This document shows, piece after piece, positions 776 through 32,764 of a stretch of 43,661 nucleotides of DNA. This DNA is from a virus: the IMG/VR virus record IMGVR_UViG_3300047408_000046, positions 1-43,661 of that record; one strand, written 5' to 3'. The notes beneath the pieces were generated by a model. It was not told the DNA's origin and did not search any database. It saw only the letters and a program-made list of their open reading frames with translations. Positions within the stretch are counted from its first letter, which is position 1; every line of letters begins with the position of its first letter. The position numbers were made by a program, and so were the translations under genes.

Positions 776-1210
776 CTACCTGATTTGGGACCACTGGCCG
801 TCTTTTGAACGCTGGTGCATTTGCCATTCAGCCCAGGGATTCTGCTCCTTTGCGACCTTAAACTTGACGATGGAATCCTCCCATATATGCCGGCCTTTGA
901 TCTCGACAAAGCGCAATCGCAGGATCATGGACGATACGACAACAAAGAAGTCCGGGCAGTACCGACAACCATCAGCGAGCTTCAACGTCACGCCCTCGTA
1001 TTTGTAGGACTCGATTTCGTGATCGCGCTTCATTCTTTCTAAAATCATGGCGTATTCTAGTTCAGCATTCGACATGGAACGGCCTTTAACGGGCATCTGC
1101 GGGGTCTGTACAGCGTTTTGGTCCTTGAGTAGCGTCATGATAGCGGCATTTTGATTTAAGAACGATTGGCTCGCCCTGGGGAATTTCTGGCGAAGTTCGG
1201 CTTCAGTCAT
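776..1210 (-). CDS. PD-(D/E)XK nuclease, DUF1064-like
   Basis: Probable small endonuclease of phage recombination or replication. The C-terminal half carries the nuclease signature: Glu-50/52 in a helix, PD at 86-87 (YCPDFFVV) and ExK at 103-105 (FVEIKGR), followed by a Lys-rich helix (IVKFKVAKEQ). This layout is typical of the DUF1064 family of phage endonucleases, related in fold to Holliday-junction resolvases. The N-terminal 45 residues look like a linker. It is the last gene of the leftward early operon and starts 4 nt inside its upstream neighbour. Family assignment is by motif only. Confidence 0.65.
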   Translation of the reverse strand: MTEAELRQKFPRASQSFLNQNAAIMTLLKDQNAVQTPQMPVKGRSMSNAELEYAMILERMKRDHEIESYKYEGVTLKLADGCRYCPDFFVVVSSMILRLRFVEIKGRHIWEDSIVKFKVAKEQNPWAEWQMHQRSKDGQWSQIR

Positions 1211-1419
1211 AGCGAGAACGCCTCATATTGTGTAACGGCGCTCCTCAGACGGGCACGCAAGGCCAGCAGATATTCGTGGTCACAGTTTGGATCGGCTTCG
1301 TGCATTTCAACCAGCGCCCGGAGAGTCTGAATCTTCTGCCATTTTGCGATCACCTTCTCGCGGTGGGCTTTGTCGTGCTCGAGCGAGTCCCAGTGAACGG
1401 ATTGTGGTTGCCGCCTCAT
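1207..1419 (-). CDS. Hypothetical protein, 70 aa
   Basis: Small, charged, mostly helical protein (MRRQPQSVHWDSLEHDKAHR at the start) with no recognised domain. It overlaps both neighbours by 4 nt (ATGA junctions), which supports it as a real member of the early operon. Its place between the replisome-organiser-like gene and the nuclease gene suggests a role in phage DNA metabolism, but nothing in the sequence shows it. Confidence 0.6.
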   Translation of the reverse strand: MRRQPQSVHWDSLEHDKAHREKVIAKWQKIQTLRALVEMHEADPNCDHEYLLALRARLRSAVTQYEAFSL

Positions 1420-2153
1420 GGCATCTTGAATTTTTCTCTAAGTTTCTCCACCTCTTCGCTGGCAATCCGTTTTGCGTTAGCGATTTCTTCGTCCGTAGGT
1501 TGGCGTGATACTCCCGGCTTCGGATACGACGGTGCCTTCTCCTTTGACCTGACAAACTCGGGAGGCGCGTTTCGGGATTGCTGCCTTTGACTTGGTAAAA
1601 ACTTTCCTTTTTGCCAGCTCCGGAGTGTGGCTTTCCAGTCAAGAATCGGCTTTCCGCCATTGGTCCAGCCGTTAGCCCGGCCTTTCCAATAAAACCAGTC
1701 AGCGTCAGCCTCAGAAATTCCTACCGATCTTGCAAACTCCCTAACTCTTTCCAGACCACTGTCAGTACCATTGTCAATGTCAGGGGTTTGCTCTCGCTTT
1801 GCTTGCGCTGTTGCTCCTCCTTTGCTACCAGCTTCCACCCGCTTTCGCCTGACGTCCTCCTCCCTAACCATACGTCGGTTTACTAAAGTGCCTGTTGCAT
1901 CTCTGCTTGCTACTCCTGATGCTATCAATACGTCGATAGCATCTTTAGCCTCCCCTTCAGTCATTCCGAGTAAACGGGCCAAACCTGAGTTTGACATAGG
2001 CCGACCATTTAAGGTGAGCCTGCCGCGTTGCTCAGAACAATGCATGAGGAGTAGTAACTCAAACCAGACACCTCTGTGATGATAAGAAAGTGATTGGATC
2101 GCCATGTCCTTGCGCCAATCGCCCACATAAAACTGGATATGCGGCAACGTCAC
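1416..2153 (-). CDS. Replisome organiser-like protein (DUF1376/DnaD-type)
   Basis: Probable phage replication initiation protein. The N-terminus has the DUF1376/YdaU pattern: HIQFYVGDWRKDM, then LSYHHRGVWFELLLLMH, then a winged-helix region with LARLLGMTEGEAKDAIDVL (about residues 58-76). A charged linker follows (GSKGGATAQAKREQ), then a second conserved block near 155-185 with WFYWKGRANGWTNGGKPI and DWKATLRSW, seen at the C-terminus of many phage O/DnaD-like proteins. Such proteins bind the origin and load helicase. No helicase gene is visible, so the host enzyme is presumably recruited. Confidence 0.7.
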   Translation of the reverse strand: MTLPHIQFYVGDWRKDMAIQSLSYHHRGVWFELLLLMHCSEQRGRLTLNGRPMSNSGLARLLGMTEGEAKDAIDVLIASGVASRDATGTLVNRRMVREEDVRRKRVEAGSKGGATAQAKREQTPDIDNGTDSGLERVREFARSVGISEADADWFYWKGRANGWTNGGKPILDWKATLRSWQKGKFLPSQRQQSRNAPPEFVRSKEKAPSYPKPGVSRQPTDEEIANAKRIASEEVEKLREKFKMP

Positions 2154-2545
2154 AGTTCATCCCGCCACGTTGGAAATTCCTTAAGTTTCTTGGTCAACCT
2201 GCTCTCTGGAATCCCATTGGCATCCTTGAGAATTTCAACAACAGTTTCCGGATTAAACTCTCGCTCTGAAATCAAGACCAATTCCAGTGTTCTTTCCCAT
2301 GGCGCCGGCCCAAGAGTCTCGAAATCCGAACTGAAATCATGTTGGATTTTGTGACATTCGTCACATAGGACATCCGTTGTTTCAGGCAGATATTCCCACG
2401 GTTTGCGGCCAGAAATGTAGAAGCGGTGATGAACGTGCAACGTGGATTCCTTGTCGCAACAAACGTCACACCTCCACTTTGCCAGTTCTAGGCGTTGGAG
2501 TCTGAATTTCTGCCAACGTGGATCAAGGTAGTCTGATTTGCTCAT
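2150..2545 (-). CDS. HNH endonuclease, 131 aa
   Basis: The HNH fold is clear: Cys26-x2-Cys29, His39-His40-Arg (HVHHRFYISGRKPWEY), then Cys61-x2-Cys64-His65 and His69. The two CxxC pairs would bind a structural zinc and the HH pair lies in the beta-beta-alpha metal finger. The protein is short, with an acidic and helical tail (residues 75-131) of unknown role. It sits inside the early operon and overlaps both neighbours by 4 nt. It could be a DNA-processing HNH or a degenerate homing enzyme; the operon position favours the former. Confidence 0.75.
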   Translation of the reverse strand: MSKSDYLDPRWQKFRLQRLELAKWRCDVCCDKESTLHVHHRFYISGRKPWEYLPETTDVLCDECHKIQHDFSSDFETLGPAPWERTLELVLISEREFNPETVVEILKDANGIPESRLTKKLKEFPTWRDEL

Positions 2546-2724
2546 CGGTCTTTTGTGGCATTGACTCTTACTTCCTTCTCAAGTTCGTCAGCGCACTGCT
2601 TGCAGGCCCGGGCATTGTACGACCACCTGAACCCGCTAATGGTGACGACCTGGGTTGCGGGCTGGCCGCAGATTTCCTTGCCGTCCGACGTCGGGAACTC
2701 GCAACGTCCGATTACTTCGTCCAT
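2542..2724 (-). CDS. Small zinc-binding protein, 60 aa
   Basis: The protein has Cys8 and Cys19 in RCEFPTSDGKEICGQPA and a second pair ACKQC near residues 40-43, with a basic helical tail. Two Cys pairs about 25 residues apart suggest a zinc ribbon or treble-clef. No enzyme motif is present. It overlaps the HNH gene by 4 nt and the HTH gene by 13 nt. Function unknown; many early phage operons carry such proteins. Confidence 0.6.
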   Translation of the reverse strand: MDEVIGRCEFPTSDGKEICGQPATQVVTISGFRWSYNARACKQCADELEKEVRVNATKDR

Positions 2725-2903
2725 AAACCGTTTTCCATAAACGCATCCAAATCCTTGCGCCGAATCCGCACGAATTTCTTGGTGGGTTTACACGAGCGAA
2801 TGTGTCCGGCGGTGATATGACGTTCGAGGAAGCGCGTTGTACATTGCAGATATTCTGCGGCTTGCTTTTTGGTCAGAAGTTCGCGGTCTGTTAATGTATC
2901 CAT
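2712..2903 (-). CDS. Helix-turn-helix protein, excisionase/MerR-like (HTH_17)
   Basis: A 63-residue winged HTH of the excisionase (HTH_17) type. LLTKKQAAEYLQCTTRFLER is the first helix and turn, RHITAGHIRSCKP the second and wing, then RIRRKDLDAFMENG, the usual end of this family. Proteins like this act as phage excisionases (Xis) or small regulators. As the genome has a tyrosine integrase and no other Xis, this is a good excisionase candidate, although it lies far from the integrase. The start is an ATG inside the 3' end of the upstream microprotein gene. Confidence 0.7.
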   Translation of the reverse strand: MDTLTDRELLTKKQAAEYLQCTTRFLERHITAGHIRSCKPTKKFVRIRRKDLDAFMENGLWTK

Positions 2904-3037
2904 AAATAAATCAGGATTGTGACGCAGACGGCTAGGCCGGACAGCAACCAGAAGGCGCGTTTCTTCTCAGCGCGAGTTAGCATCTCGACCTTATTGCGCT
3001 GCACCTCGTAAAAGTAACGGCTAATGAAGTGGATCAT
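2891..3037 (-). CDS. Single-pass membrane microprotein, 48 aa
   Basis: The ATG at 3037 overlaps the upstream TGA (ATGA), and the 3' end overlaps the HTH gene start by 13 nt. The N-terminal 27 residues are charged and helical (MIHFISRYFYEVQRNKVEML then TRAEKKR), followed by a hydrophobic segment WLLSGLAVCVTILIYLWI that runs to the C-terminus. This is the topology of a tail-anchored membrane protein. No family is recognised. Confidence 0.55.
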   Translation of the reverse strand: MIHFISRYFYEVQRNKVEMLTRAEKKRAFWLLSGLAVCVTILIYLWIH

Positions 3038-3207
3038 GCGGCTATGTCTGCCTCCAGATGTTTGATCTTTGCCAAGCGCCGGCGTGGCCGCGCAAGGAGT
3101 CCCGCTTCCTGCAAGATGTATTCTAGTTGTGCGCGGGCTGTGACGCTTGGGTCAAACCAGCGTTTTGTTATCTGCCGCTTTAGTTCTGCTTTTTCCTCTG
3201 TTGTCAT
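3034..3207 (-). CDS. Hypothetical basic protein, 57 aa
   Basis: The ATG at 3207 overlaps the stop of the zinc-ribbon gene (ATGA) and the stop overlaps the next start (ATGA). It is a basic helical protein (TTEEKAELKRQITKRW near the start, RPRRRLAKIKHLEADIAA at the end). It may bind nucleic acid but has no named motif. Support comes mainly from the seamless coupling on both sides. Confidence 0.55.
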   Translation of the reverse strand: MTTEEKAELKRQITKRWFDPSVTARAQLEYILQEAGLLARPRRRLAKIKHLEADIAA

Positions 3208-3413
3208 GTTGCTGCCAGTGTTTTTACTACGCTCAGTGTCGTACGATCGTGCCAGTGACCGTCCTCGAAATCCGCATCCGGGTGTATCTCAAGCTTTGTA
3301 TGGCAAGACGGGCATGTCGCGTACTTCGACAGCGGTAACGCAACCGGAACATCCTCGCCACAGTCATCGACAGGGCACGGATAGTAGTTGTGCCAAGGAT
3401 CGCTGTTAGTCAT
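3204..3413 (-). CDS. Zinc-ribbon protein, 69 aa
   Basis: I chose ATG 3413 over longer starts because it overlaps the stop of the RecE-like gene (ATGA). The protein has two Cys pairs, CPVDDCG (about residues 13-18) and CPSCHTK (about 34-40), forming a zinc ribbon, and then an acidic and His-rich tail (HPDADFEDGHWHD). It probably binds zinc and possibly a protein or nucleic-acid partner of the neighbouring recombination proteins. No catalytic motif is visible. Confidence 0.6.
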   Translation of the reverse strand: MTNSDPWHNYYPCPVDDCGEDVPVALPLSKYATCPSCHTKLEIHPDADFEDGHWHDRTTLSVVKTLAAT

Positions 3414-4288
3414 GCCATCATAGCCTGTTTTAACTCCCACGGTGGCAGCGCCACTTCGTCGTAAGATTCTGACCACCCCGGCCACTTCCCGCTTTCAAGA
3501 CAGTTGCGGTAAATCTGGATGTCGCGCTGGTATAGCCTGCGTCCGTAGTTAATGACATCGGCGTTCATAAGAAGGCAGCGCACCAGGTAGGGCGGCGTTT
3601 TCTCTACGCAGATAAAAAAGAAGTTTTCTTTCTCGATCCCGGCCAGTTTACAGTTGTCGATGTAGTACGCGGCCTGAACGTGGTATCGGTAGCGCGAGAC
3701 GTTGCGCTCAAACTGGTCGAGGGCTGCGGACTCGGTTGTTTTCAGATCCGGGATCACGTTGCCTTTCGTGAGCGCGTCTAGGCGGCTTTTACGCAGAGTG
3801 CCGCTGTCGTCTTCAACGAAAATGGATTGTTCCGGTGTGCCACCGGCCAGCAGTTTTTTAGCGAATGGATGGCAGTGAACGGCTGAAACCATCGCGTCGA
3901 TCTGGTCGGATTCCGTTTGGCTGATGATGGGAAGTTGTTTGTGTTGTTCCTGCCATGCCATGCCGTCTTTGGTGGTAAAGCGAAGTCCTTCCGGCTTTAC
4001 GTGGAATGCGGCTGTGTAGGTGTCTGGTTCGAGCAGCGCCCGGTGAACGATTGCACCGAAACGCATGGCGGGTGTTTCTTCTTTGGTAAGGCCGTACATG
4101 TATGCGGCCAGGTGCGCGGGGGTCTGATTGGCGAGAAAGTCCAACATGGTTTTACTGCACCCGTTTGCGGCGTGGTAGCGTTCAGCGGGAACGGAGTAGA
4201 TTCCTGGCTTAAAGCGATTTTCGCTTACAGCCGACTCGTTGAGCAAACTGTTGAGGTCTTCTGAGAGTTCGAGGGTTTCCTGTGTCAT
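3410..4288 (-). CDS. RecE-like exonuclease (PD-(D/E)XK, DUF3799)
   Basis: Probable 5'-3' double-strand DNA exonuclease that makes 3' tails for the single-strand annealing protein encoded just upstream. The PDDEXK core of the RecE C-terminal/DUF3799 family is visible: FGAIVHRALLEPDTY (His82), RLDAL (Asp171), PDLKTT (Asp181, Lys183) and YRYHVQAAYYID (Gln205). At 292 residues it is the catalytic domain alone, without the long N-terminus of E. coli RecE. It overlaps the RecT-like gene by 4 nt, the usual order for a phage recombination pair. Confidence 0.85.
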   Translation of the reverse strand: MTQETLELSEDLNSLLNESAVSENRFKPGIYSVPAERYHAANGCSKTMLDFLANQTPAHLAAYMYGLTKEETPAMRFGAIVHRALLEPDTYTAAFHVKPEGLRFTTKDGMAWQEQHKQLPIISQTESDQIDAMVSAVHCHPFAKKLLAGGTPEQSIFVEDDSGTLRKSRLDALTKGNVIPDLKTTESAALDQFERNVSRYRYHVQAAYYIDNCKLAGIEKENFFFICVEKTPPYLVRCLLMNADVINYGRRLYQRDIQIYRNCLESGKWPGWSESYDEVALPPWELKQAMMA

Positions 4289-4959
4289 AGATCGACTTCA
4301 TCTGGCAGCACGATGGCAGGTTTGACGGTTGAAACCTTCTCATCCGGGGCAGATCCTACGGAGGTGTCTTCGACTACGGATAAGCCGCGCAACGCATCGG
4401 CAAAGGCATCACGACAGGCCCAGCTTCGTGCCCGCATCTGCAACATTCGTTTCGGGTAAGCGTTGTGAACGTTTTTCCCGTGTAACCCTGCGCGTTTTGC
4501 GTCGTTTACGCTAAATGTGCGTTTAACAGGCAGACGCCCGCGCCGATGGACTTCACAGATGGCGGTAAGCTCGTCACCAGTTCCTGCGAAGGTCTCGATG
4601 ACATCCTGGCAATCGGGATGTTGTAGAACGAGGCCAAGGAGCGCGTCACCCCAGACGCTAGGGCGCCCGTTTGTGACCATGATATTAGTAAGCGACCAGA
4701 TCGGGGTAAGACCGAGTTCGAGACCGGCCTGTAACCGGATCAAAGCGACTTCTGGCGTGTTAATGTCTTTGAAGGTGCCGCTGTTGACTACGGCCATGCA
4801 GAAGCGCCACATACTTTCCATGTCGGAAAAGGTGAGGCCACGGTTGCCAGCCTGGACGATAGCTTTCTTCGGCTTCCTGACGCGAAGGGCTTTGTTATTA
4901 GCGTGTTCCTGCGCCGGTGCTTCTTCGTTCATTACTGCTAGTTGGTTTTCTTCGGTCAT
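4285..4959 (-). CDS. recT: RecT-family single-strand annealing protein
   Basis: A RecT-like recombinase that coats single-stranded DNA and anneals complementary strands. Family features: TPEVALIRLQAGLELGLTPI (residues 68-87), then NIMVTNGRPSVWGDALLGLV (92-111), and near the end KRMLQMRARSWACRDAF and ADALRGL. At 224 residues it is slightly short for RecT (about 270), with a shortened basic N-terminus. It is coupled to the RecE-like exonuclease. The pair would support replication, circularisation of packaged ends and genetic exchange. Confidence 0.85.
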   Translation of the reverse strand: MTEENQLAVMNEEAPAQEHANNKALRVRKPKKAIVQAGNRGLTFSDMESMWRFCMAVVNSGTFKDINTPEVALIRLQAGLELGLTPIWSLTNIMVTNGRPSVWGDALLGLVLQHPDCQDVIETFAGTGDELTAICEVHRRGRLPVKRTFSVNDAKRAGLHGKNVHNAYPKRMLQMRARSWACRDAFADALRGLSVVEDTSVGSAPDEKVSTVKPAIVLPDEVDL

Positions 4960-5813
4960 AATAGTTTTCTGATTTCGCGTAATAGTTCGTAGGCAACCTG
5001 GCTTTGAATGCTGTTACCAAGTGCCTTCAGACGCGATACGCGATCTTTCACGCCCTTGCTCACTCTTGGGACTCCTTCCCATTCGTCGGGGTATTGCCAA
5101 TAGCCGTGTAGTCCTTCGGGTAGCCGATGAGCCACTCCACGAACTGCGGGTTCAGGGAGCCAAGTTGCCACTCCTCCTTCGTGGTTCCGCGAATCCTTGT
5201 ATCGTTGCCCAGCATCGCCTGCATATTCCCATTCGGAGTTCCCGCTGCGTCCTCGTTTGCTGATGGACTTGGCAACAATCCACAATCTGTCTCGTCTGTG
5301 TCTGGCATCGACGGCACAAGCCGGAATAACAAACGACCTTGTGGCGTAGCCGATTCCTTCCAGGTCAGAAAGCACGTTGTCGAGTTCCATCGAGATGAAG
5401 CCAGCAACCTCCTCGATAACAGTCCAAGTGGGTCGTGCTTCGCCAATAACGCGGAACATCTCAGGCCAGAGCGCACGGTCATCTGCCGAGCCTCGTCGTT
5501 TCCCGGCAACGCTGTAGGGCTGACAAGGAGGACTCCCTGTGATGAGGTCAACTCCCCGGAAATTGGTTCCGTCGAAGTCGAAGATGTCGGAGTGGATGGG
5601 AACTCCTGGGAAGTGCTTTGCAAGCACTCGCTGTGCGTATCGCTCAATCTCAACAAATCCAAGTGTGCGGAACCCGCTCCATTGGGCGGCAAGTCCCCAA
5701 CCGGCAATTCCAGAGAAGATGTCGAGGTGCGTCGGTTGACTTCCTGTTCCAGTGTCGGGCGAAAGTTGGGGCTGCTGTAGCCCCCGATCTTGTTCGCTCT
5801 TGGTGTCGGCCAC
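4956..5813 (-). CDS. dcm: DNA (cytosine-5-)-methyltransferase
   Basis: Motif I is DIFSGIAGWG (residues 31-40), motif IV GSPPCQPYS with the catalytic Cys, motif VI IEEVAGF, motif VIII DARHRRDRLWIVA and motif X LKALGNSIQSQVAYEL near the C-terminus. Motif VI reads EEV instead of the usual ENV. The target-recognition region between VIII and X is short. The start is GTG 5813, with GGAG six nt upstream. It probably methylates phage DNA against host restriction. A second open frame (5060-5818, same strand) covers 88% of this gene. Confidence 0.88.
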   Translation of the reverse strand: MADTKSEQDRGLQQPQLSPDTGTGSQPTHLDIFSGIAGWGLAAQWSGFRTLGFVEIERYAQRVLAKHFPGVPIHSDIFDFDGTNFRGVDLITGSPPCQPYSVAGKRRGSADDRALWPEMFRVIGEARPTWTVIEEVAGFISMELDNVLSDLEGIGYATRSFVIPACAVDARHRRDRLWIVAKSISKRGRSGNSEWEYAGDAGQRYKDSRNHEGGVATWLPEPAVRGVAHRLPEGLHGYWQYPDEWEGVPRVSKGVKDRVSRLKALGNSIQSQVAYELLREIRKLL

Positions 5814-5818
5814 ATCAT
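5060..5818 (-). CDS. Overlapping-frame protein resembling phage methylase-associated proteins, 252 aa
   Basis: A 252-codon frame on the same strand as the methyltransferase, in another phase and almost fully nested in it. Its first ATG overlaps the upstream stop (ATGA), as at most junctions in this operon. It starts MMWPTPRANK and ends with GSLNPQFVEWLIGYPKDYTA. It also holds CFLTWKESATPQGRLLFRLV. I recall the WPTP...LNPxWVEWLMGFP pattern from stand-alone phage proteins annotated as cytosine methylases. The start ATGs lie 1 and 4 nt after GGAG, closer than ideal. It could be a translated overprinted gene, a frameshift partner or a fortuitous frame. Confidence 0.45.
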   Translation of the reverse strand: MMWPTPRANKIGGYSSPNFRPTLEQEVNRRTSTSSLELPVGDLPPNGAGSAHLDLLRLSDTHSECLQSTSQEFPSTPTSSTSTEPISGELTSSQGVLLVSPTALPGNDEARQMTVRSGLRCSALLAKHDPLGLLSRRLLASSRWNSTTCFLTWKESATPQGRLLFRLVPSMPDTDETDCGLLPSPSANEDAAGTPNGNMQAMLGNDTRIRGTTKEEWQLGSLNPQFVEWLIGYPKDYTAIGNTPTNGKESQE

Positions 5819-6045
5819 ACTCCGTTCATTGGCTTGATGGTGCGCTTTGCGAGAAACGATTCGATGTCGCAGGCGCGTACGGTGTGAGTCTTAGCCGATA
5901 AGATGATGATTGGCAGATTGCTGCGAATCCATTCCGGCGACTTATGAAGTAGCTTCGCGGCGGAAGGCACAGGAATGGTTTCAAGTTTGCGTAACCGCTC
6001 CAAGATTTGCGATGCCTCGCGTTCTAATTGACTAAGGGCAGTCAT
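5815..6045 (-). CDS. Small HTH-like DNA-binding protein, 76 aa
   Basis: The N-terminal 25 residues are a charged helix (LEREASQILERLRKLE). Then IPVPSAAKLLHKSPEWIRSN has the helix-turn-helix spacing of excisionase-like domains, followed by DIESFLAKR, the usual end of HTH_17 folds. It is likely a DNA-binding accessory protein. Its stop TGA overlaps the ATG of the frame nested in the methyltransferase gene. Moderate confidence in the fold, none in a specific target. Confidence 0.6.
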   Translation of the reverse strand: MTALSQLEREASQILERLRKLETIPVPSAAKLLHKSPEWIRSNLPIIILSAKTHTVRACDIESFLAKRTIKPMNGV

Positions 6046-6371
6046 GTGGCCCTCCAGACGATGCAGGTTCGGTTCGTCGGCCCTTCACGACGTTTGCCGC
6101 TGTCGAACACAAGCCCCTTGCGAACCAGCGGCGCTATCCTTGGCGTAATCGTGTTCCAGTCTATGCCTGTTACCCTTACCAACCCGTGATTGGTCAACCC
6201 GTTGGGATGCTCGCGTAACGCTGATAACACGACAGCTTCAAGCCGGTTTGCCAGTTCCTTGCGCACGAATGCCGCTGACAGATGCGAGGTATCAGGATCA
6301 GTGGCACGCGCATACGCGAATAACTCGCCATAACTGGCGTGTTCGTTTGCGGCGTAGTGAAGGTGCTTCAC
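6042..6371 (-). CDS. Winged-helix protein, 109 aa
   Basis: After an N-terminal segment with YARATDPDTSHLSA (a motif I have seen in phage MarR/GntR-like small proteins) comes a winged helix: LEAVVLSALREHPNGLTNHG, then WNTITPRIAPLVRKGLVFD and a wing ending SGKRREGPTNRTCIVW. It may regulate the early operon or act in replication. ATGA overlaps at both ends place it firmly in the operon. Confidence 0.65.
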   Translation of the reverse strand: MKHLHYAANEHASYGELFAYARATDPDTSHLSAAFVRKELANRLEAVVLSALREHPNGLTNHGLVRVTGIDWNTITPRIAPLVRKGLVFDSGKRREGPTNRTCIVWRAT

Positions 6372-6559
6372 GCTGGCAGTTTCGCTTTTTGCTTCAGATC
6401 GCGTTCGATCTTTTCGTCCGCTGCGATCAAGACCTCGATGTAATTTGAAAAACTACGGCGTGCCTCTCGCGCTCGTTGTTCCCCTTGTGCGAGCAAATCC
6501 GACGACAAACTAATCGTCGTACGTTTTTTATCACATGCTGAGCTTGTGCGCGTTTTCAT
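6368..6559 (-). CDS. Ribbon-helix-helix repressor-like protein, 63 aa
   Basis: I chose ATG 6559 because the RHH fold starts soon after it and a promoter lies just upstream; longer starts would run through the promoter. KKRTTISLSSDLLAQGEQRA is the beta strand and first helix, followed by RSFSNYIEVLIAADE as the second helix. This is the Arc/MetJ class, which binds short direct or inverted repeats as dimers. As the first gene of the leftward early operon, next to GTATG/CATAC repeats, it is a candidate autoregulator. Confidence 0.65.
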   Translation of the reverse strand: MKTRTSSACDKKRTTISLSSDLLAQGEQRAREARRSFSNYIEVLIAADEKIERDLKQKAKLPA

Positions 6560-6835: not shown

Positions 6836-7041
6836 GCACCAGCAGGGCGACCATTAGTATCGATGCAGACCTTTTCGAGAAGGCACAAAGGCGTGCAAAA
6901 GCCCTGAACTACCGAGGCGGCTTTTCGGAATACGTTGCGTTTTTGATAAGCAGGGACGTAACCGAGCGACCAAAGCACGTCGTGGTGAGGGAAGAAGTTT
7001 CACCGAAATACCGAACAAAGAAAAGAAAACCAATTAAATGA
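6832..7041 (+). CDS. Ribbon-helix-helix protein with basic tail, 69 aa
   Basis: The second RHH protein in the cluster. [20 protein letters not shown] and [15 protein letters not shown] give the strand and two helices in residues 5-43. A C-terminal tail of about 25 residues is strongly basic ([11 protein letters not shown]). ATGA overlaps at both ends. It is related in fold to the genes on either side but not a close duplicate. Likely a DNA-binding regulator. Confidence 0.6.
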
Positions 7042-7433
7042 AAAAGGCGAGTGATTGGGTTCAGCGCGGATACAGCAAAGTGCGGCAAGCCAGACGACGC
7101 GGCTTATTGATTCCGCAACCTTGCGAACGCTGCGGAAACTCAAAAGTTGAGGCGCATCACGACGATTATTTCAAGCCATTAGATGTTAAATGGCTATGCC
7201 GTAAACACCATCTTATGCGTCATAAAGAAGAAATTGGTTGGCGATTACCGCGCCCGATTGTTCAGCCTGTTAAGGTAAGAGGAGAGGCAAAAGTCAGCAC
7301 GACGTTCAGAGTCACCAGCAAGATGAACTCCGAAGTCGAAGCACTCGCCAATCAGCGCAGCCAAACGGTGAGTTTAATAGTTCGCGAAGCCATTGGCGAA
7401 TACCTGGAAAAACGAAAGAAAAAGCCGAAATAA
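7038..7433 (+). CDS. HNH-like zinc finger fused to ribbon-helix-helix domain
   Basis: Two-domain protein. Residues 29-62 carry a treble-clef HNH-like motif: Cys29-x2-Cys32, His40-His41 ([17 protein letters not shown]), Cys54 and His57-His58. This short zinc module is common in phages and often lacks clear nuclease residues. Residues 85-125 form an RHH domain ([17 protein letters not shown], then [17 protein letters not shown]). The fusion suggests site-directed DNA binding through the RHH part, with the zinc part acting as a nuclease or a structural element. It overlaps the previous RHH gene by 4 nt. Confidence 0.6.
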
Positions 7434-8381: not shown

Positions 8382-9467
8382 ATGCGCTTAGGAAAGATTC
8401 ATGTTCGGCAGTATTCGGACGGCAGGTGGGGTTATGACAGCTACTCGGGCGGCAAGCGCAAGATGGTGCGATGCAAGACCAAGGAAAAAGCGTTGTCCCG
8501 CGCAATGGATGTGAACGTCCTCATGGCCAACGGGCGCGTCGATCTGCTTCAGGGAACACCCGCTGAATGGGAAGAATTCAAGAAGTGGAAATCCGCCTGC
8601 CGGAACAGTTCAACCCTTGGCGATGCGTGCAAAGAGTTCGTCGCACTTAAAAAGGCGAAAAGCACCGCGTACTACCGGAAGTTGAAAAACGACCTGACCC
8701 TTTTCGAGCAGTTCATCGGGTCCACGCAACTCATCGGGGAAATCAAGGCGCTGGACATTCAACGCTTCATTCACTCGCGCAATGTCGGGCTGCGCCGGCA
8801 ACTCAACCTGCGCATGTCGGTAATCGGGCTGTTCCTGTGGGCGAAACGCATGTCGTACGTTGACCCTGACCGCATGACTGAAGCGGAGAAGGTTGAACCA
8901 ATCGAGAAAGTGCCGGGTCAACCCAACGTCCTGACCCCGGATCAGATGCGCACACTACTTGATAACGTGCGTGAGGAATATCTGCCGTGGCTGTGCGTGG
9001 CTGGATTTGCCGGTGTGCGCAGTGAAGAGATAGCGCCCGAACACGATTCCAAAAAATCGCGGTTAAAGTGGGAAGACTTCGACTGGGACAACCAGGTCAT
9101 CATCGTCCGGGCGCAAACGGCCAAGACCCGTGAAGAACGCGAAGTGCCAATTTCGCAGAATCTCGCGCAATGGCTCGAGCCGTATCGCCACGCAAAGGGG
9201 CCAATCTGCGCCCTGCGGCCCTCCAACTACGAAACCGCACGTCTGGGCGCATTCATCGGCGGCTGGAAGCACAACGCGCTCAGGGACTCGTTCTGCAGCT
9301 ATCGGGCACGCATCACGCAAAATGTTCCACAAGTTTCGTACGAAATGGGAAACTCGGTTTCGATGGTGAAGAGATCCTACCACCGGCGCCAACCGATCCA
9401 GACCGCGCAGCAGTGGTTCGACATCAGACCTCTTGAAGATGTGAACGTGGTAGCTTTTTCACAATAA
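8382..9467 (+). CDS. int: Tyrosine integrase
   Basis: A 361-residue tyrosine recombinase that would integrate and excise the phage. The N-terminal 130 residues hold an arm-binding-like region and a SAM-like core-binding domain (residues 78-165). The catalytic set is complete: Arg213 (GVRSEEI), Lys248 (TAKTREER), His297 and Arg301 (HNALRDSFCSY), and nucleophile Tyr333 (KRSYHRR). The usual second His is replaced by Asn324 in MGNS, which I recall as normal for the related bacterial subgroup. A tRNA-3'-end-like attP lies about 95 bp downstream, the classic arrangement. Confidence 0.9.
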   Translation: MRLGKIHVRQYSDGRWGYDSYSGGKRKMVRCKTKEKALSRAMDVNVLMANGRVDLLQGTPAEWEEFKKWKSACRNSSTLGDACKEFVALKKAKSTAYYRKLKNDLTLFEQFIGSTQLIGEIKALDIQRFIHSRNVGLRRQLNLRMSVIGLFLWAKRMSYVDPDRMTEAEKVEPIEKVPGQPNVLTPDQMRTLLDNVREEYLPWLCVAGFAGVRSEEIAPEHDSKKSRLKWEDFDWDNQVIIVRAQTAKTREEREVPISQNLAQWLEPYRHAKGPICALRPSNYETARLGAFIGGWKHNALRDSFCSYRARITQNVPQVSYEMGNSVSMVKRSYHRRQPIQTAQQWFDIRPLEDVNVVAFSQ

Positions 9468-29881: not shown

Positions 29882-31112
29882 TTAACCCGCATAAGCCGAT
29901 TTTGACGAAACACTCACGATCCAGGTCGCGTTGAGCACGACGCTGCACCAGTAAGTTTTCAAACCTGCTGTAATAAACCGATTGGTTGGCGACCTTGTTA
30001 CTACTTGCATAGCAAGCGGCCACTCGATTTCTCAGTGGCTCTCTGGTTTCATTTATAGCCAGAGGTCGGACTGTATCTTCACTTTCGTGGTTGCGTGCAG
30101 TCTCTACGGGGTCAATTACGACTTCCCTCGGTATTGTCCCTTTCGGGAGTTTCACCGATACAGCAACATTTTTCATCCCGGCTATTCCTAACCGGGAAGG
30201 CGACCCAAGTTGATCGCTTTTATCGGGTTTATCACAGATCATCATCTGCGGGTTAAACGGTGACAGGCCACCCATTTGCGGGATGCCGAAACCGTCAGTG
30301 CCCATGGCGAAGCTGCGATAGATGGCGTTAGCCGCTGTCGGCGCAGCCACGTAGGTGCCTTCAGCGCCTGATCCGTCTTCGATGAACGGGTTCGTGTGTT
30401 TCACGATCCGCACACCGTACCAGCGACCGATTTCGCCGGTCATCAGGCTTTTGCTGGTGCCGTATTGACCGGCCAACAGAACCTTTGGATCAGCAAGGAT
30501 GTCCCTGGCGACCTGCGGCCCTACCACGAACACGTATTCCCCGTTAAGCATGGGAGCGCGTGTGAGCGTGAGTCGGGTCATGGCGTCAAGGATGTCGTTG
30601 AGCACCAGTGCTCCTGTCGCTCCGGGCACACCGCCCGTTAGCGCCTGCAAACCAGCGAAGGTTTGCGTGGTGCCGGTGTAACGCTTGTTGCCGGCGCCAG
30701 TCACACCCGCGACAAGTGAATCGCGGATTTTACTGTCGGCGTGAAGCGCCACATCTTCGCCCATGACACCCGTCATGTTTTTCAAGGTGTCGAACAGGTT
30801 AGTCCAACTCAGCACATCAGAGATTTTGGCTGCAAGCTCATACTCGACGAGCGTTGCATCGATAAAGGTATACGTGTAGTCCCTGAACGTTGTCGTCGGG
30901 ATACCCTCACCGCCTGCCAAAACGTTTGCTGCTGAAGCTGTGTCTCCCCTAGTGAACCGAATTGTGACCGCTCCTTGTTCTCTAGGAAACGGTACTTTTT
31001 GCCCAAATTGGGCGAGCACTAATAACTGAACTGCATGTGGAAGTAACTTCTTCGAAAAATAACGTTGGTATTGACCGGTGATTCCCGAAGAAGTCGACGT
31101 GAGTAAGGGCAT
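29882..31112 (-). CDS. Major capsid protein (N4gp56-type), split by a group I intron
   Basis: Coding is join(31112..30191, 29967..29882): 922 + 86 nt, giving 335 residues. Exon 1 has family features: YFSKKLLPHAVQLLVLAQFG, EYVFVVGPQVARDILADPKV, YGVRIVKHTNPF and DKPDKSDQLGSPSR. The uninterrupted frame continues through the intron to 29877 and would give 411 residues with an unrelated, charged tail. Joining R307 to exon 2 gives SRSGLKTYWCSVVLNATWIV, the expected capsid end (compare GWK...VVLN...WxV). It forms the icosahedral shell on the scaffold encoded two genes upstream. Confidence 0.88.
29968..30190 (-). ncRNA. Group I self-splicing intron, 223 nt, no internal ORF
   Basis: Minus strand. P1: exon TCCCGGT (30197-30191) pairs with GCCGGGA (30182-30176), with a U-G pair at the splice site. 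P3: GTTGC 30167-30163 with GCAAC 30094-30090. P4: TCGGT 30158-30154 with ACCGA 30132-30128. P5: TCCC-GAAA-GGGA. P6: GTC with GAC. P7: GACTG 30102-30098 with CAGTC 30073-30069. P8: CAC-GAAA-GTG. J8/7 is AAGATA. P9: CTCTGG/CCAGAG. P9.1: GCCACT/AGTGGC. P9.2: CTTGC/GCAAG. The intron ends in G at 29968. The fit of the exons' protein frame confirms both splice sites. Confidence 0.92.
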
Positions 31113-31137
31113 AATTGATTCCTTTCATTTGTGTTGT

Positions 31138-31797
31138 TTATGCCTCCTTCTTTTGTTCGTTTGCGGCTCTTGGGAATGTCGATTCTGAGGTCGCCTCGCG
31201 TTCACCTCGTCCTCGGATATTTTTCTTTGGTTGCGCACCATCGCGAGCGAAATTGAGTTCATCGGGCATCTTGGCAGCCTTCAGTATGTTGCACATACGA
31301 TGCACGATTGAGAGATTCCAAATGTCACCAGTTCCGCCTTTGGATAACGGAATTACATGGTCAATCGTCCTGTCAGACTTGGGCATGTTCTTGTCGCATA
31401 TCGCGCACTTCAAACGTGCTGAGGATGACACTAATTGAGAAAGAATGTTGATAGCCGATTTATCCAACGTTGTCCTAACGCGTTCCCTGCGACGATGGTC
31501 TTTAATCCTAACCTTCACGGGATTTTTGTGTCGCCATTGTCGCGCCCTTACAATGTTTTTCTGATACAACGCTTTCGCCTTATCTGGATTGTTTTGCCAC
31601 CACTGTCTCTGTTTTTGCAAAATAACCTCAGTGTTTTTCAGATAATGCGCTCTCCGCTGCTCATTCATTTTTTGACGATTCTTTTCGCGCCACTTCCGCA
31701 TGTAAACCGTCCTTTCCTCGCGATGGCTCCTAGCGTACTCACGACCTTTCACGCGCAGATACTCGCGGTGTTCGACGTGCCATTGGGAGGTTGCCAT
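31138..31797 (-). CDS. Free-standing HNH homing endonuclease, 219 aa
   Basis: The C-terminal half has a complete HNH site: Cys131-x2-Cys134, Asp146-His147 (TIDHVIPLSKGGTG), Asn161 and His166-x2-Cys169-Asn170. The N-terminal 100 residues are repeats of YxxxNxEKxxxxxRxWxxxN type (MRKWREKNRQKMNEQRR, RQWWQNNPDKAKALYQKN), a DNA-binding arm common in phage homing endonucleases. It is wedged between scaffold and capsid genes, 25 bp from the capsid start, and is not part of the morphogenetic set. It could mobilise the nearby capsid intron. Confidence 0.8.
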   Translation of the reverse strand: MATSQWHVEHREYLRVKGREYARSHREERTVYMRKWREKNRQKMNEQRRAHYLKNTEVILQKQRQWWQNNPDKAKALYQKNIVRARQWRHKNPVKVRIKDHRRRERVRTTLDKSAINILSQLVSSSARLKCAICDKNMPKSDRTIDHVIPLSKGGTGDIWNLSIVHRMCNILKAAKMPDELNFARDGAQPKKNIRGRGEREATSESTFPRAANEQKKEA

Positions 31798-31801
31798 AAA
31801 C

Positions 31802-32764
31802 TTAGCGATAATTGTCTGCTTCTGCAGTTATACCACGAAGGTGCGCTTCCATCTCATCCAAACTTAAATCGTCAAAGTCTTTCTCACCCGTCCGTGGTGC
31901 TGCGTAACCACCCCTAGCCGGTTGGCCTTTGCGCCTGCCCTTTTCCAGTTCGGCTTTGAGTGACACAATCTCGTCTTCCAGTTCCTTCATGTGGCTCTCG
32001 CGGGTAACGTAATACGCAGCTTCAGCCGCGAGTTTGAATCCGTTGGGCAGATTGTAGATACCGGGATTCTGTTCGATGATGCGTGCAAGTGTCTGGTGCA
32101 TGGGATCGTTGGCATCCCAAATTTGGGGTGCCACCTTGCCGACTTCCTGCATCTGCTGGCGCCACTGATATTCCTTGTTAGCCTGCTCGAACTGCTGGTA
32201 ATTCTGCTGTTCGGCACGGCCCATCTCGGACGCTACCTTGTAGGCTTTCAGCGCGTTTTCGTGGTCGCCGTCGCGTTCAAATACCTTCGCGCCGTCGTAG
32301 TACTGCTGCGCGGTGAGACCGTCTTTCTTGAGGGGCTGATACTGCTGGGTTTGCGCTTGCAGTTGCGCTAGGCGTTGTTGTTCCTCCCATTGCGCCTGTT
32401 GCTGGCGGAATTGTTCCTTCTCAGCTTGGAGTGCCGACCACGACCTGTCCTGACGTGCTTTTTCTTTTACCGCTCTGGAATAGTCGGTATCGGTGCGTTC
32501 ACGTTTCTGGAATTGTCCGTTCTTGTCGCGTGGCGGCTGTTCCGGTTCCTGCTTGGCAGCGACATCCTCTGTGTCCGGCGCTTCGTCGGTGGAAGGTACT
32601 TCTGTTTCAGTCGGTGTAGGCGTTTCATCGGGTTCAGGACGTGCAGACGTCATCTCCTGCTGCGAGGCTTCAACCTCTCTGCCTTGCGCTTGATCGGTTT
32701 GAATGCCCAGCTCGCGCATTGACGCTTCTTCGGCGTCCGGTGCTGTTATACTTTCAGTTTCCAT
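31802..32764 (-). CDS. Scaffolding protein, 320 aa
   Basis: Typical podovirus scaffold: very acidic disordered N-terminus (residues 1-95, rich in Glu, Pro and Thr), a Gln-rich coiled coil (EKEQFRQQQAQWEEQQRLAQ), helices with YYDGAKVFERDGDHENALKA, and a basic patch near the C-terminus (LEKGRRKGQPARGG) that would bind capsid protein. Scaffold guides shell assembly and leaves before or during packaging. It lies between the portal group and the capsid gene, the conserved order. Confidence 0.75.
   Translation of the reverse strand: METESITAPDAEEASMRELGIQTDQAQGREVEASQQEMTSARPEPDETPTPTETEVPSTDEAPDTEDVAAKQEPEQPPRDKNGQFQKRERTDTDYSRAVKEKARQDRSWSALQAEKEQFRQQQAQWEEQQRLAQLQAQTQQYQPLKKDGLTAQQYYDGAKVFERDGDHENALKAYKVASEMGRAEQQNYQQFEQANKEYQWRQQMQEVGKVAPQIWDANDPMHQTLARIIEQNPGIYNLPNGFKLAAEAAYYVTRESHMKELEDEIVSLKAELEKGRRKGQPARGGYAAPRTGEKDFDDLSLDEMEAHLRGITAEADNYR

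What the first reader, a model, noticed from the sequence alone, without database searches (positions are those of the whole stretch)
29882..31112. Major capsid gene is interrupted by a 223-nt group I intron
The capsid frame looks intact for 411 codons, but its last 100 residues are not capsid-like. Within it lies a complete group I core on the minus strand (P1 with a U-G pair, P3, P4-P6 with a GAAA-capped P5, P7 GACTG/CAGTC, P8, J8/7 AAGATA, P9-P9.2). Splicing 30191 to 29967 restores frame and gives SRSGLKTYWCSVVLNATWIV, the expected family ending. The intron happens to be open in the capsid frame, so standard gene callers would miss it and report a wrong C-terminus. Group I introns in phage capsid genes are uncommon.
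Basis: partly seen in the sequence, partly recalled or inferred. Interest (0 to 1): 0.93.

Follow-up and report, generated by a model that had tools for sequence, protein, structure and literature searches.

The report
Group I intron in phage capsid gene
The main shell-protein gene of this unnamed phage is interrupted by a small RNA insert of a kind known to cut itself out of messages; the insert is almost certainly real, but its ends lie 22 bases from where they were first placed.

Summary
[quoted passage not shown] Six intron-free relatives (72-87% identical) end ...DKSDPTN(R/K)FIT(A/V)G...; the 30213/29989 junction gives DKSD|PTNRFITAGLKTYW, the best of 28,205 junctions tried (one tie lacks the splice-site U and G). 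A covariance model built without the window finds it at 138 bits, and also finds two mycobacteriophage introns (BAKA tail, LittleE capsid) that others showed to splice. So it is a new member of a known kind, in a kind of gene where such introns are already known. Less ordinary: in a gene-blind scan, 13 of 18 stretches with related introns lie in capsid genes of the same broad family (with near-duplicates among them), and one capsid gene is cut by five. A free-standing HNH gene beside the capsid gene, absent there in the intron-free relatives, makes linked homing possible but unproven. Splicing itself was not observed.

The parts
30213..31112 (-). exon 1 of the major capsid gene (codons 1-300, ends ...AAAAGCGAT)
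   Evidence: phrog_1357 match; 72-87% identity to L001-L006
29990..30212 (-). group I intron, 223 nt, CAACTTGGG...AAGGTCG (terminal G at 29990), no ORF of its own recognised
29882..29989 (-). exon 2 (PTNRFITAGLKTYWCSVVLNATWIVSVSSKSAYAG, stop TAA 29884-29882)
   Evidence: aligns without gaps to the ends of L001-L006
30200..30217 (-). P1: exon GCGAU (30217-30213) with intron GUCGC (30204-30200), U.G at the splice site; UUGG (30208-30205) pairs with exon-2 CCAA (29989-29986) as P10
   Evidence: two-sided change in L016 (GCCAU/GUGGC), whose own ends I placed by the same rules and its reading frame
30177..30196 (-).
   Evidence: L016 has UUGGUUA/UAGCUAA
29996..30166 (-). catalytic core and 3' domain: P3 (30166-30163 with 30094-30091), P4 (30158-30153 with 30133-30128), P5 with GAAA loop (30148-30137), P6, P7 (30102-30098 with 30073-30069), P8 (30089-30080), J8/7 AAGAUA (30079-30074), P9, P9.1, P9.2
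   Evidence: (31 pairs of P3, P4, P7, P9, P9.1, P9.2 counted, 98.2% of cells paired, 16 pairs with two-sided changes); P5, P6, P8 and J8/7 are read from the sequence
31138..31797 (-). free-standing HNH endonuclease gene between scaffold-like gene (31802-32764) and capsid gene; candidate partner in homing
   Evidence: PF14279 2e-10, PF01844 1.7e-8; no gene between scaffold-like and capsid genes in L001-L003; no tblastn match in L001-L009

Best explanation
The capsid gene carries a small ORF-less group I intron at 30212-29990. In the transcript the RNA folds into P1-P9.2, the internal guide UUGG-GUCGC holds the end of exon 1 (GCGAU) in P1 and the start of exon 2 (CCAA) in P10, exogenous guanosine cuts after U30213, and the freed exon 1 attacks after the terminal G29990, joining codon 300 (D) to P301 and giving a 335-residue capsid protein like those of the intron-free relatives. 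Shown here: the interruption, the exact junction by comparison, the conserved fold with covariation, and kinship to introns whose splicing others demonstrated. Inferred: that this copy splices, and the two chemical steps, from general knowledge of group I introns.
For: Six of six full-length relatives lack the 223 nt and read straight through the junction. P1 5/5, P2 8/8, P10 4/4, P9.0 2/2 in the window, and 5/5, 7/7, 7/7, 2/2 in L016, with a two-sided change in P1; 7 of 100,000 letter shuffles of the 13-nt intron start gave both P1 and P10. 31 core pairs on 13 sequences: 98.2% of cells paired, 16 pairs with two-sided changes, 0 of 500 shuffles as high on each of five measures. Model R1, built from 12 introns without the window: 138.2 bits, E 1.7e-48, the only match in the window; 0 of 9 records of the near relatives. 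The same model finds the BAKA (133.0 bits) and LittleE (111.1) introns, neither used to build it, spliced according to PMC3706429 (passages).
Against: No RNA data. The Rfam score is below its gathering threshold. R1's 12 sequences were fetched with patterns taken from the window, so its match to the window is not wholly independent, and its E-values are rough. P10 and P9.0 are short. L016's splice sites were placed by me with the same rules, without an intron-free relative. The unspliced frame runs 111 codons past codon 300, so a read-through protein is possible. Only one contig carries this copy; three other near relatives (L007-L009) end before the site.
Confidence: 0.95

Rival explanations
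1. Group I intron, but spliced at 30191/29967.
For: Also frame-restoring, with U before and G at the end, and a strong hairpin at the proposed P1.
Against: Gives QLGSPSRS where six of six relatives have PTN(R/K)FIT(A/V); identity 36 and 35 of 51 against 44 and 43; the stretch it discards before 29967 is itself the missing exon (CCAACCAATCGGTTTATTACAG); its terminal G would lie 28 nt after GUAACA, against 5 in BAKA.
Confidence: 0.02
2. The 223 nt is ordinary coding sequence and the 411-aa protein is the capsid protein.
For: The frame is open throughout.
Against: None of six full-length relatives has the stretch; the capsid ending is encoded downstream in another frame; the RNA fold covaries.
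Confidence: 0.01
3. A degenerate intron that no longer splices, leaving a C-terminally altered capsid protein.
For: The unspliced frame is open to 29877, so such a protein could be made.
Against: P1, P3, P4, P7, P9-P9.2, J8/7 and the terminal G look intact and the score is close to that of BAKA's intron; exon 2 keeps its reading frame and family sequence, unlikely if it were not translated.
Confidence: 0.02
4. An addition to the best explanation: intron plus neighbouring HNH gene form a collaborative-homing pair; the HNH protein cuts intron-free capsid genes at the GCGAT/CCAAC site and both are copied in together.
For: The HNH gene 31138-31797 sits just upstream of the capsid gene; L001-L003 have no gene there and the HNH has no tblastn match in L001-L009; the empty site is similar in the relatives; L016, the closest intron, has a small HNH-like ORF in the corresponding place. 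The arrangement is described for T3, a cyanophage and ICP1 (PMC10448857 passages).
Against: The L016 ORF matches HNH families only weakly (best E 0.24; no Pfam match) and is not similar to the window's HNH. The scaffold-capsid gap holds other genes in L007 and L009. One intron-bearing against six intron-free genomes is too few for a test. PF01844 matches 1 of 21 related records, some 27 kb from that record's intron. No relative of the HNH protein was found in viral contigs.
Confidence: 0.3

Closest known systems
BAKA/Optimus minor-tail-gene group I intron (mycobacteriophage cluster J)
   Same: Found by covariance model R1 (BAKA 133.0 bits); ORF-less, 265 bp, U before and G at the end; splicing shown by RT-PCR (PMC3706429 passages)
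   Different: In a tail gene, not a capsid gene; longer insert between the two P7 strands
LittleE major-capsid-gene group I intron
   Same: Found by R1 (111.1 bits); same kind of host gene; spliced in infected cells by RT-PCR, with N-terminal sequencing shown (passages)
   Different: Carries an endonuclease gene; in-frame stop 30 bp into it (PMC11855218 passages), whereas the window's intron is open
L016 intron (IMGVR_UViG_3300047471_000466)
   Same: Closest sequence found: 220 nt, aligned along its whole core, P1/P2/P10 with compensating changes
   Different: Host protein has no PHROG, Pfam or named-phage match; capsid only by gene order
Rfam RF00028 Intron_gpI
   Same: Full-length match
   Different: Below the gathering score (28.5 against 50); seven related introns (L012-L016, L018, L019) also stayed below it
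Small group I introns of Jug phages
   Same: Small phage introns (about 206 nt on average), many endonucleases free-standing, some splicing seen in metatranscriptomes (PMC12363816 passages)
   Different: Passages seen name terL, nrdD and DNA polymerase genes; sequence kinship not tested

Membership tests
Group I intron | P3-P8 core with P7 and J8/7, P4-P6 | tested here: met
   (P5, P6, P8 and J8/7 read from the sequence and the Rfam alignment)
Group I intron | P1 with U.G at the 5' splice site | tested here: met
   GCGAU/GUCGC; L016 GCCAU/GUGGC
Group I intron | P10 and terminal guanosine at the 3' splice site | tested here: met
   CCAA/UUGG, G29990
Group I intron | interrupts a gene that is continuous in relatives | tested here: met
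   six of six full-length relatives
Group I intron | self-splicing with exogenous G | not testable with these tools
   needs RNA work
Rfam RF00028 as curated | score at or above the gathering cut-off of 50 bits | tested here: not met
   28.5 bits; relatives also below
BAKA/LittleE intron lineage | found by one model built from related phage introns, window and mycobacteriophage introns left out | tested here: met
   window 138.2, BAKA 133.0, LittleE 111.1 bits; the model's rows were fetched with window-derived patterns
Collaborative-homing pair | ORF-less intron with a nearby free-standing endonuclease gene | tested here: met
Collaborative-homing pair | endonuclease cuts the intron's empty target site | not testable with these tools
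   needs protein
Collaborative-homing pair | pair recurs in related intron-bearing genomes | tested here: inconclusive
   HNH-like ORF beside L016, weak and not similar; nothing seen beside the others

The most novel reading that the evidence does not exclude
This intron belongs to a lineage of small group I introns that is specialised on phage head genes, above all the phrog_1357-type major capsid gene, which it has entered at several different sites, up to five in one gene, in part with the help of free-standing endonucleases encoded next to the capsid gene.
Probability: 0.35. Interest if true: 0.65.

Novelty: new member of a known kind. Interest (0 to 1): 0.42.

Why it matters
Read without splicing, the capsid protein of this phage gets the wrong last 111 residues, and a default Rfam scan misses the intron. 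More widely, related introns sit so often in capsid genes of uncultured phages that capsid marker-gene surveys may be truncating or losing them; and a capsid gene in six exons asks how a phage makes its most abundant protein through several splicing steps.

Tried and rejected
Splicing at 30191/29967: rejected on the relatives. A homologue of the HNH protein in viral contigs: four pattern matches, none a relative. DNA relatives of the window intron in named phages: four Lactococcus phage records with one 37-base piece each, E 0.02, not used; none for the L014 intron; 27 Mycobacterium phage records with one 44-base piece for the L027 intron, which led to BAKA. The L016 and L023 host proteins have no match in named phages; the L014 one matches 64 records, the eight listed including annotated Streptomyces phage capsid proteins. 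The pattern GGGAAGTCGTARTTGACCC gave 12 stretches in viral contigs and 27 in genome contigs, mostly candidate-phylum bacterial and DPANN archaeal MAGs; read by eye most look like other group I introns and at least one (L063) lacks the rest of the core; not followed. RNAalifold paired P3 with P7 strands, as it cannot draw a pseudoknot, so I counted my own structure, drawn on the window. A crude HNH motif scan around 11 other introns found none; that expression was not validated. In one search the junction scan was indexed one residue off; one search replaces it. Paper searches for this intron or for a capsid gene with many introns: (one search was on collaborative homing). I saw listings, and passages of six papers; nothing on this phage or on a many-intron capsid gene in what I saw, but the library is partial and only 25 of 64 papers were listed.

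Full report
What was claimed. The frame is there. Its first 300 residues match major head proteins (phrog_1357, E 1.2e-23) and, at under 60% identity, 27 named phage records, many annotated as capsid or head protein. A default Rfam scan of the window finds nothing; with a lax threshold Intron_gpI matches 30200-30049 minus over the full model at 28.5 bits, below the curated cut-off of 50.

Relatives. A scan of IMG/VR with residues 1-301 gave nine relatives. Six are long enough to show the end of the gene (L001-L006, 72-87% identical); six of six are uninterrupted and end DKSDPTN(R/K)FIT(A/V)G(L/M)K(T/M)(Y/F)W. Three (L007-L009) end before the site and say nothing. With the alignment as query, 26 loci came back, nine of them the same contigs and 17 more distant; in these 26 the intron model has two weak matches only (9 bits, E 0.12, L045 and L046).

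The junction. In the window exon 1 follows the relatives up to AAAAGCGAT (30213), and they are followed again from C29989 (CCAACCAATCGGTTTATTACAGCAGG, PTNRFITAG). Joining the two gives a 335-residue protein, the length of L001. I tried 28,205 pairs of ends: this one is best, tied only with the pair one base over, which lacks the U and the G of group I splice sites. Both removals are 223 nt because both ends are off by the same 22 nt.

The fold. With these ends the classical parts fall into place: P1 GCGAU/GUCGC with U.G at the cleavage site, P10 CCAA/UUGG, P9.0 GA/UC beside the terminal G; the hairpin taken for P1 is P2. In the closest intron found, L016, P1 is GCCAU/GUGGC and P10 is seven pairs, two of them G-U; L016's ends were placed by me with the same rules and its reading frame, so it is support rather than proof. 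P1 and P10 arose together in 7 of 100,000 letter shuffles of the 13-nt intron start. On 13 related cores 31 pairs were counted: 98.2% of cells paired, 16 pairs with changes on both sides, 0 of 500 shuffles as high on each of five measures, slid versions 27-40% paired. The structure was drawn on the window, so the slid control favours it somewhat; P7 never varies and says nothing.

Kinship. A covariance model from 12 introns without the window finds the window at 138.2 bits and nothing else in it, and nothing in the nine records of L001-L009. The 12 were fetched with patterns taken from the window, so part of the score is built in. The same model finds the BAKA tail intron (133.0 bits) and the LittleE capsid intron (111.1 bits), neither used to build it; I came to them through a 44-base match of the L027 intron to Mycobacterium phages and the paper. 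PMC3706429 reports that both are spliced (passages seen). A default Rfam scan of L011-L021 reports none of the seven related introns among them, so this lineage is easily overlooked.

Host genes of the lineage. The gene-blind pattern CCGTAGAGACTGCACGC gave 18 stretches of 17 records in viral contigs. Of ten flanking exons scanned, eight match phrog_1357, the window's own capsid family (those of L016 and L024 did not). L024 is capsid by tblastn. Four more (L018, L019, L030, L032) were not scanned; their cores or printed flanks are identical or nearly so to L014, L012, L028 and L027. That makes 13 of 18 in capsid genes, with near-duplicates among them; one (L029, same record as L022) precedes a portal-protein frame; four (L016, L023, L025, L031) have no family match. 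I have no background rate for introns in other genes, so this is a tendency, not a test. Insertion points differ: by profile position about 50-87 (L028, L027, L013), 238 (L022), 291 (L026) and 324-326 (L012, L014, L015). In L024 five model matches lie between the pieces of one capsid gene, which gives six exons; two weaker pieces (41-45% identical) run into one of the cores. L106 (record of L022) has three in the capsid gene and two upstream.

The neighbour. Between the scaffold-like gene and the capsid gene lies an HNH gene (31138-31797). L001-L003 have no gene there; in L004-L006 and L008 the scaffold match ends within about 135 bases of the capsid start; the HNH protein has no tblastn match in L001-L009. 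L007 and L009 carry other genes there, so the gap is a general insertion site. L016 has a small ORF with an HNH-like look in the corresponding place, weakly matched and not similar to the window's. PF01844 was found in 1 of 21 related records, about 27 kb from its intron. Collaborative homing, an ORF-less intron moved by a nearby free-standing endonuclease, is known in phages (PMC10448857 and PMC3984707 passages). Here it is a fair guess, no more.

Open frame. In the window's capsid frame, 11 of 13 related cores have at least one stop and two (the window and L029) have none. I see no need for selection on it, but did not test it.

Verdict. The recurring capsid location of its lineage is the more interesting lead.

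Noticed in passing
L024 (IMGVR_UViG_3300043752_000086) 1601-4178, minus strand: A phrog_1357-like capsid gene interrupted by five related group I introns, six exons in 2.6 kb.
   Followed up: partly
L106 (record of L022) 813-5508; L107 (record of L031) 1169-6454: Clusters of five and six introns found by the same model: three in the capsid gene and two upstream in L106; in L107 in and around an unassigned gene similar to that of L025.
   Followed up: partly
window 4956-5818, minus strand: Two long frames overlap on the same strand: a C5 DNA methylase (285 aa, PF00145 2e-32) and a 252-aa frame matching phrog_1008 (2.4e-24, also labelled DNA methyltransferase; no Pfam match). Possible dual coding, or a family built on an out-of-frame reading.
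   Followed up: partly
window 31112-31800; L007 1531-2978; L009 1845-2973: The gap between scaffold-like and capsid genes holds different genes in near relatives, a variable insertion site.
   Followed up: partly
window 2150-2545 and 7038-7433: Two more HNH/endonuclease-like genes; an integrase at 8382-9467 suggests a temperate phage.
   Followed up: no
L023 4416-6712; L025 1400-1888: Related introns followed by long frames that look endonuclease-like by eye, in an unassigned gene.
   Followed up: no
L068-L094 (genome contigs): The motif GGGAAGTCGTA(A/G)TTGACCC, in the P6 region of the window's intron, occurs in what look like group I introns of many candidate-phylum bacterial and DPANN archaeal contigs.
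   Followed up: no
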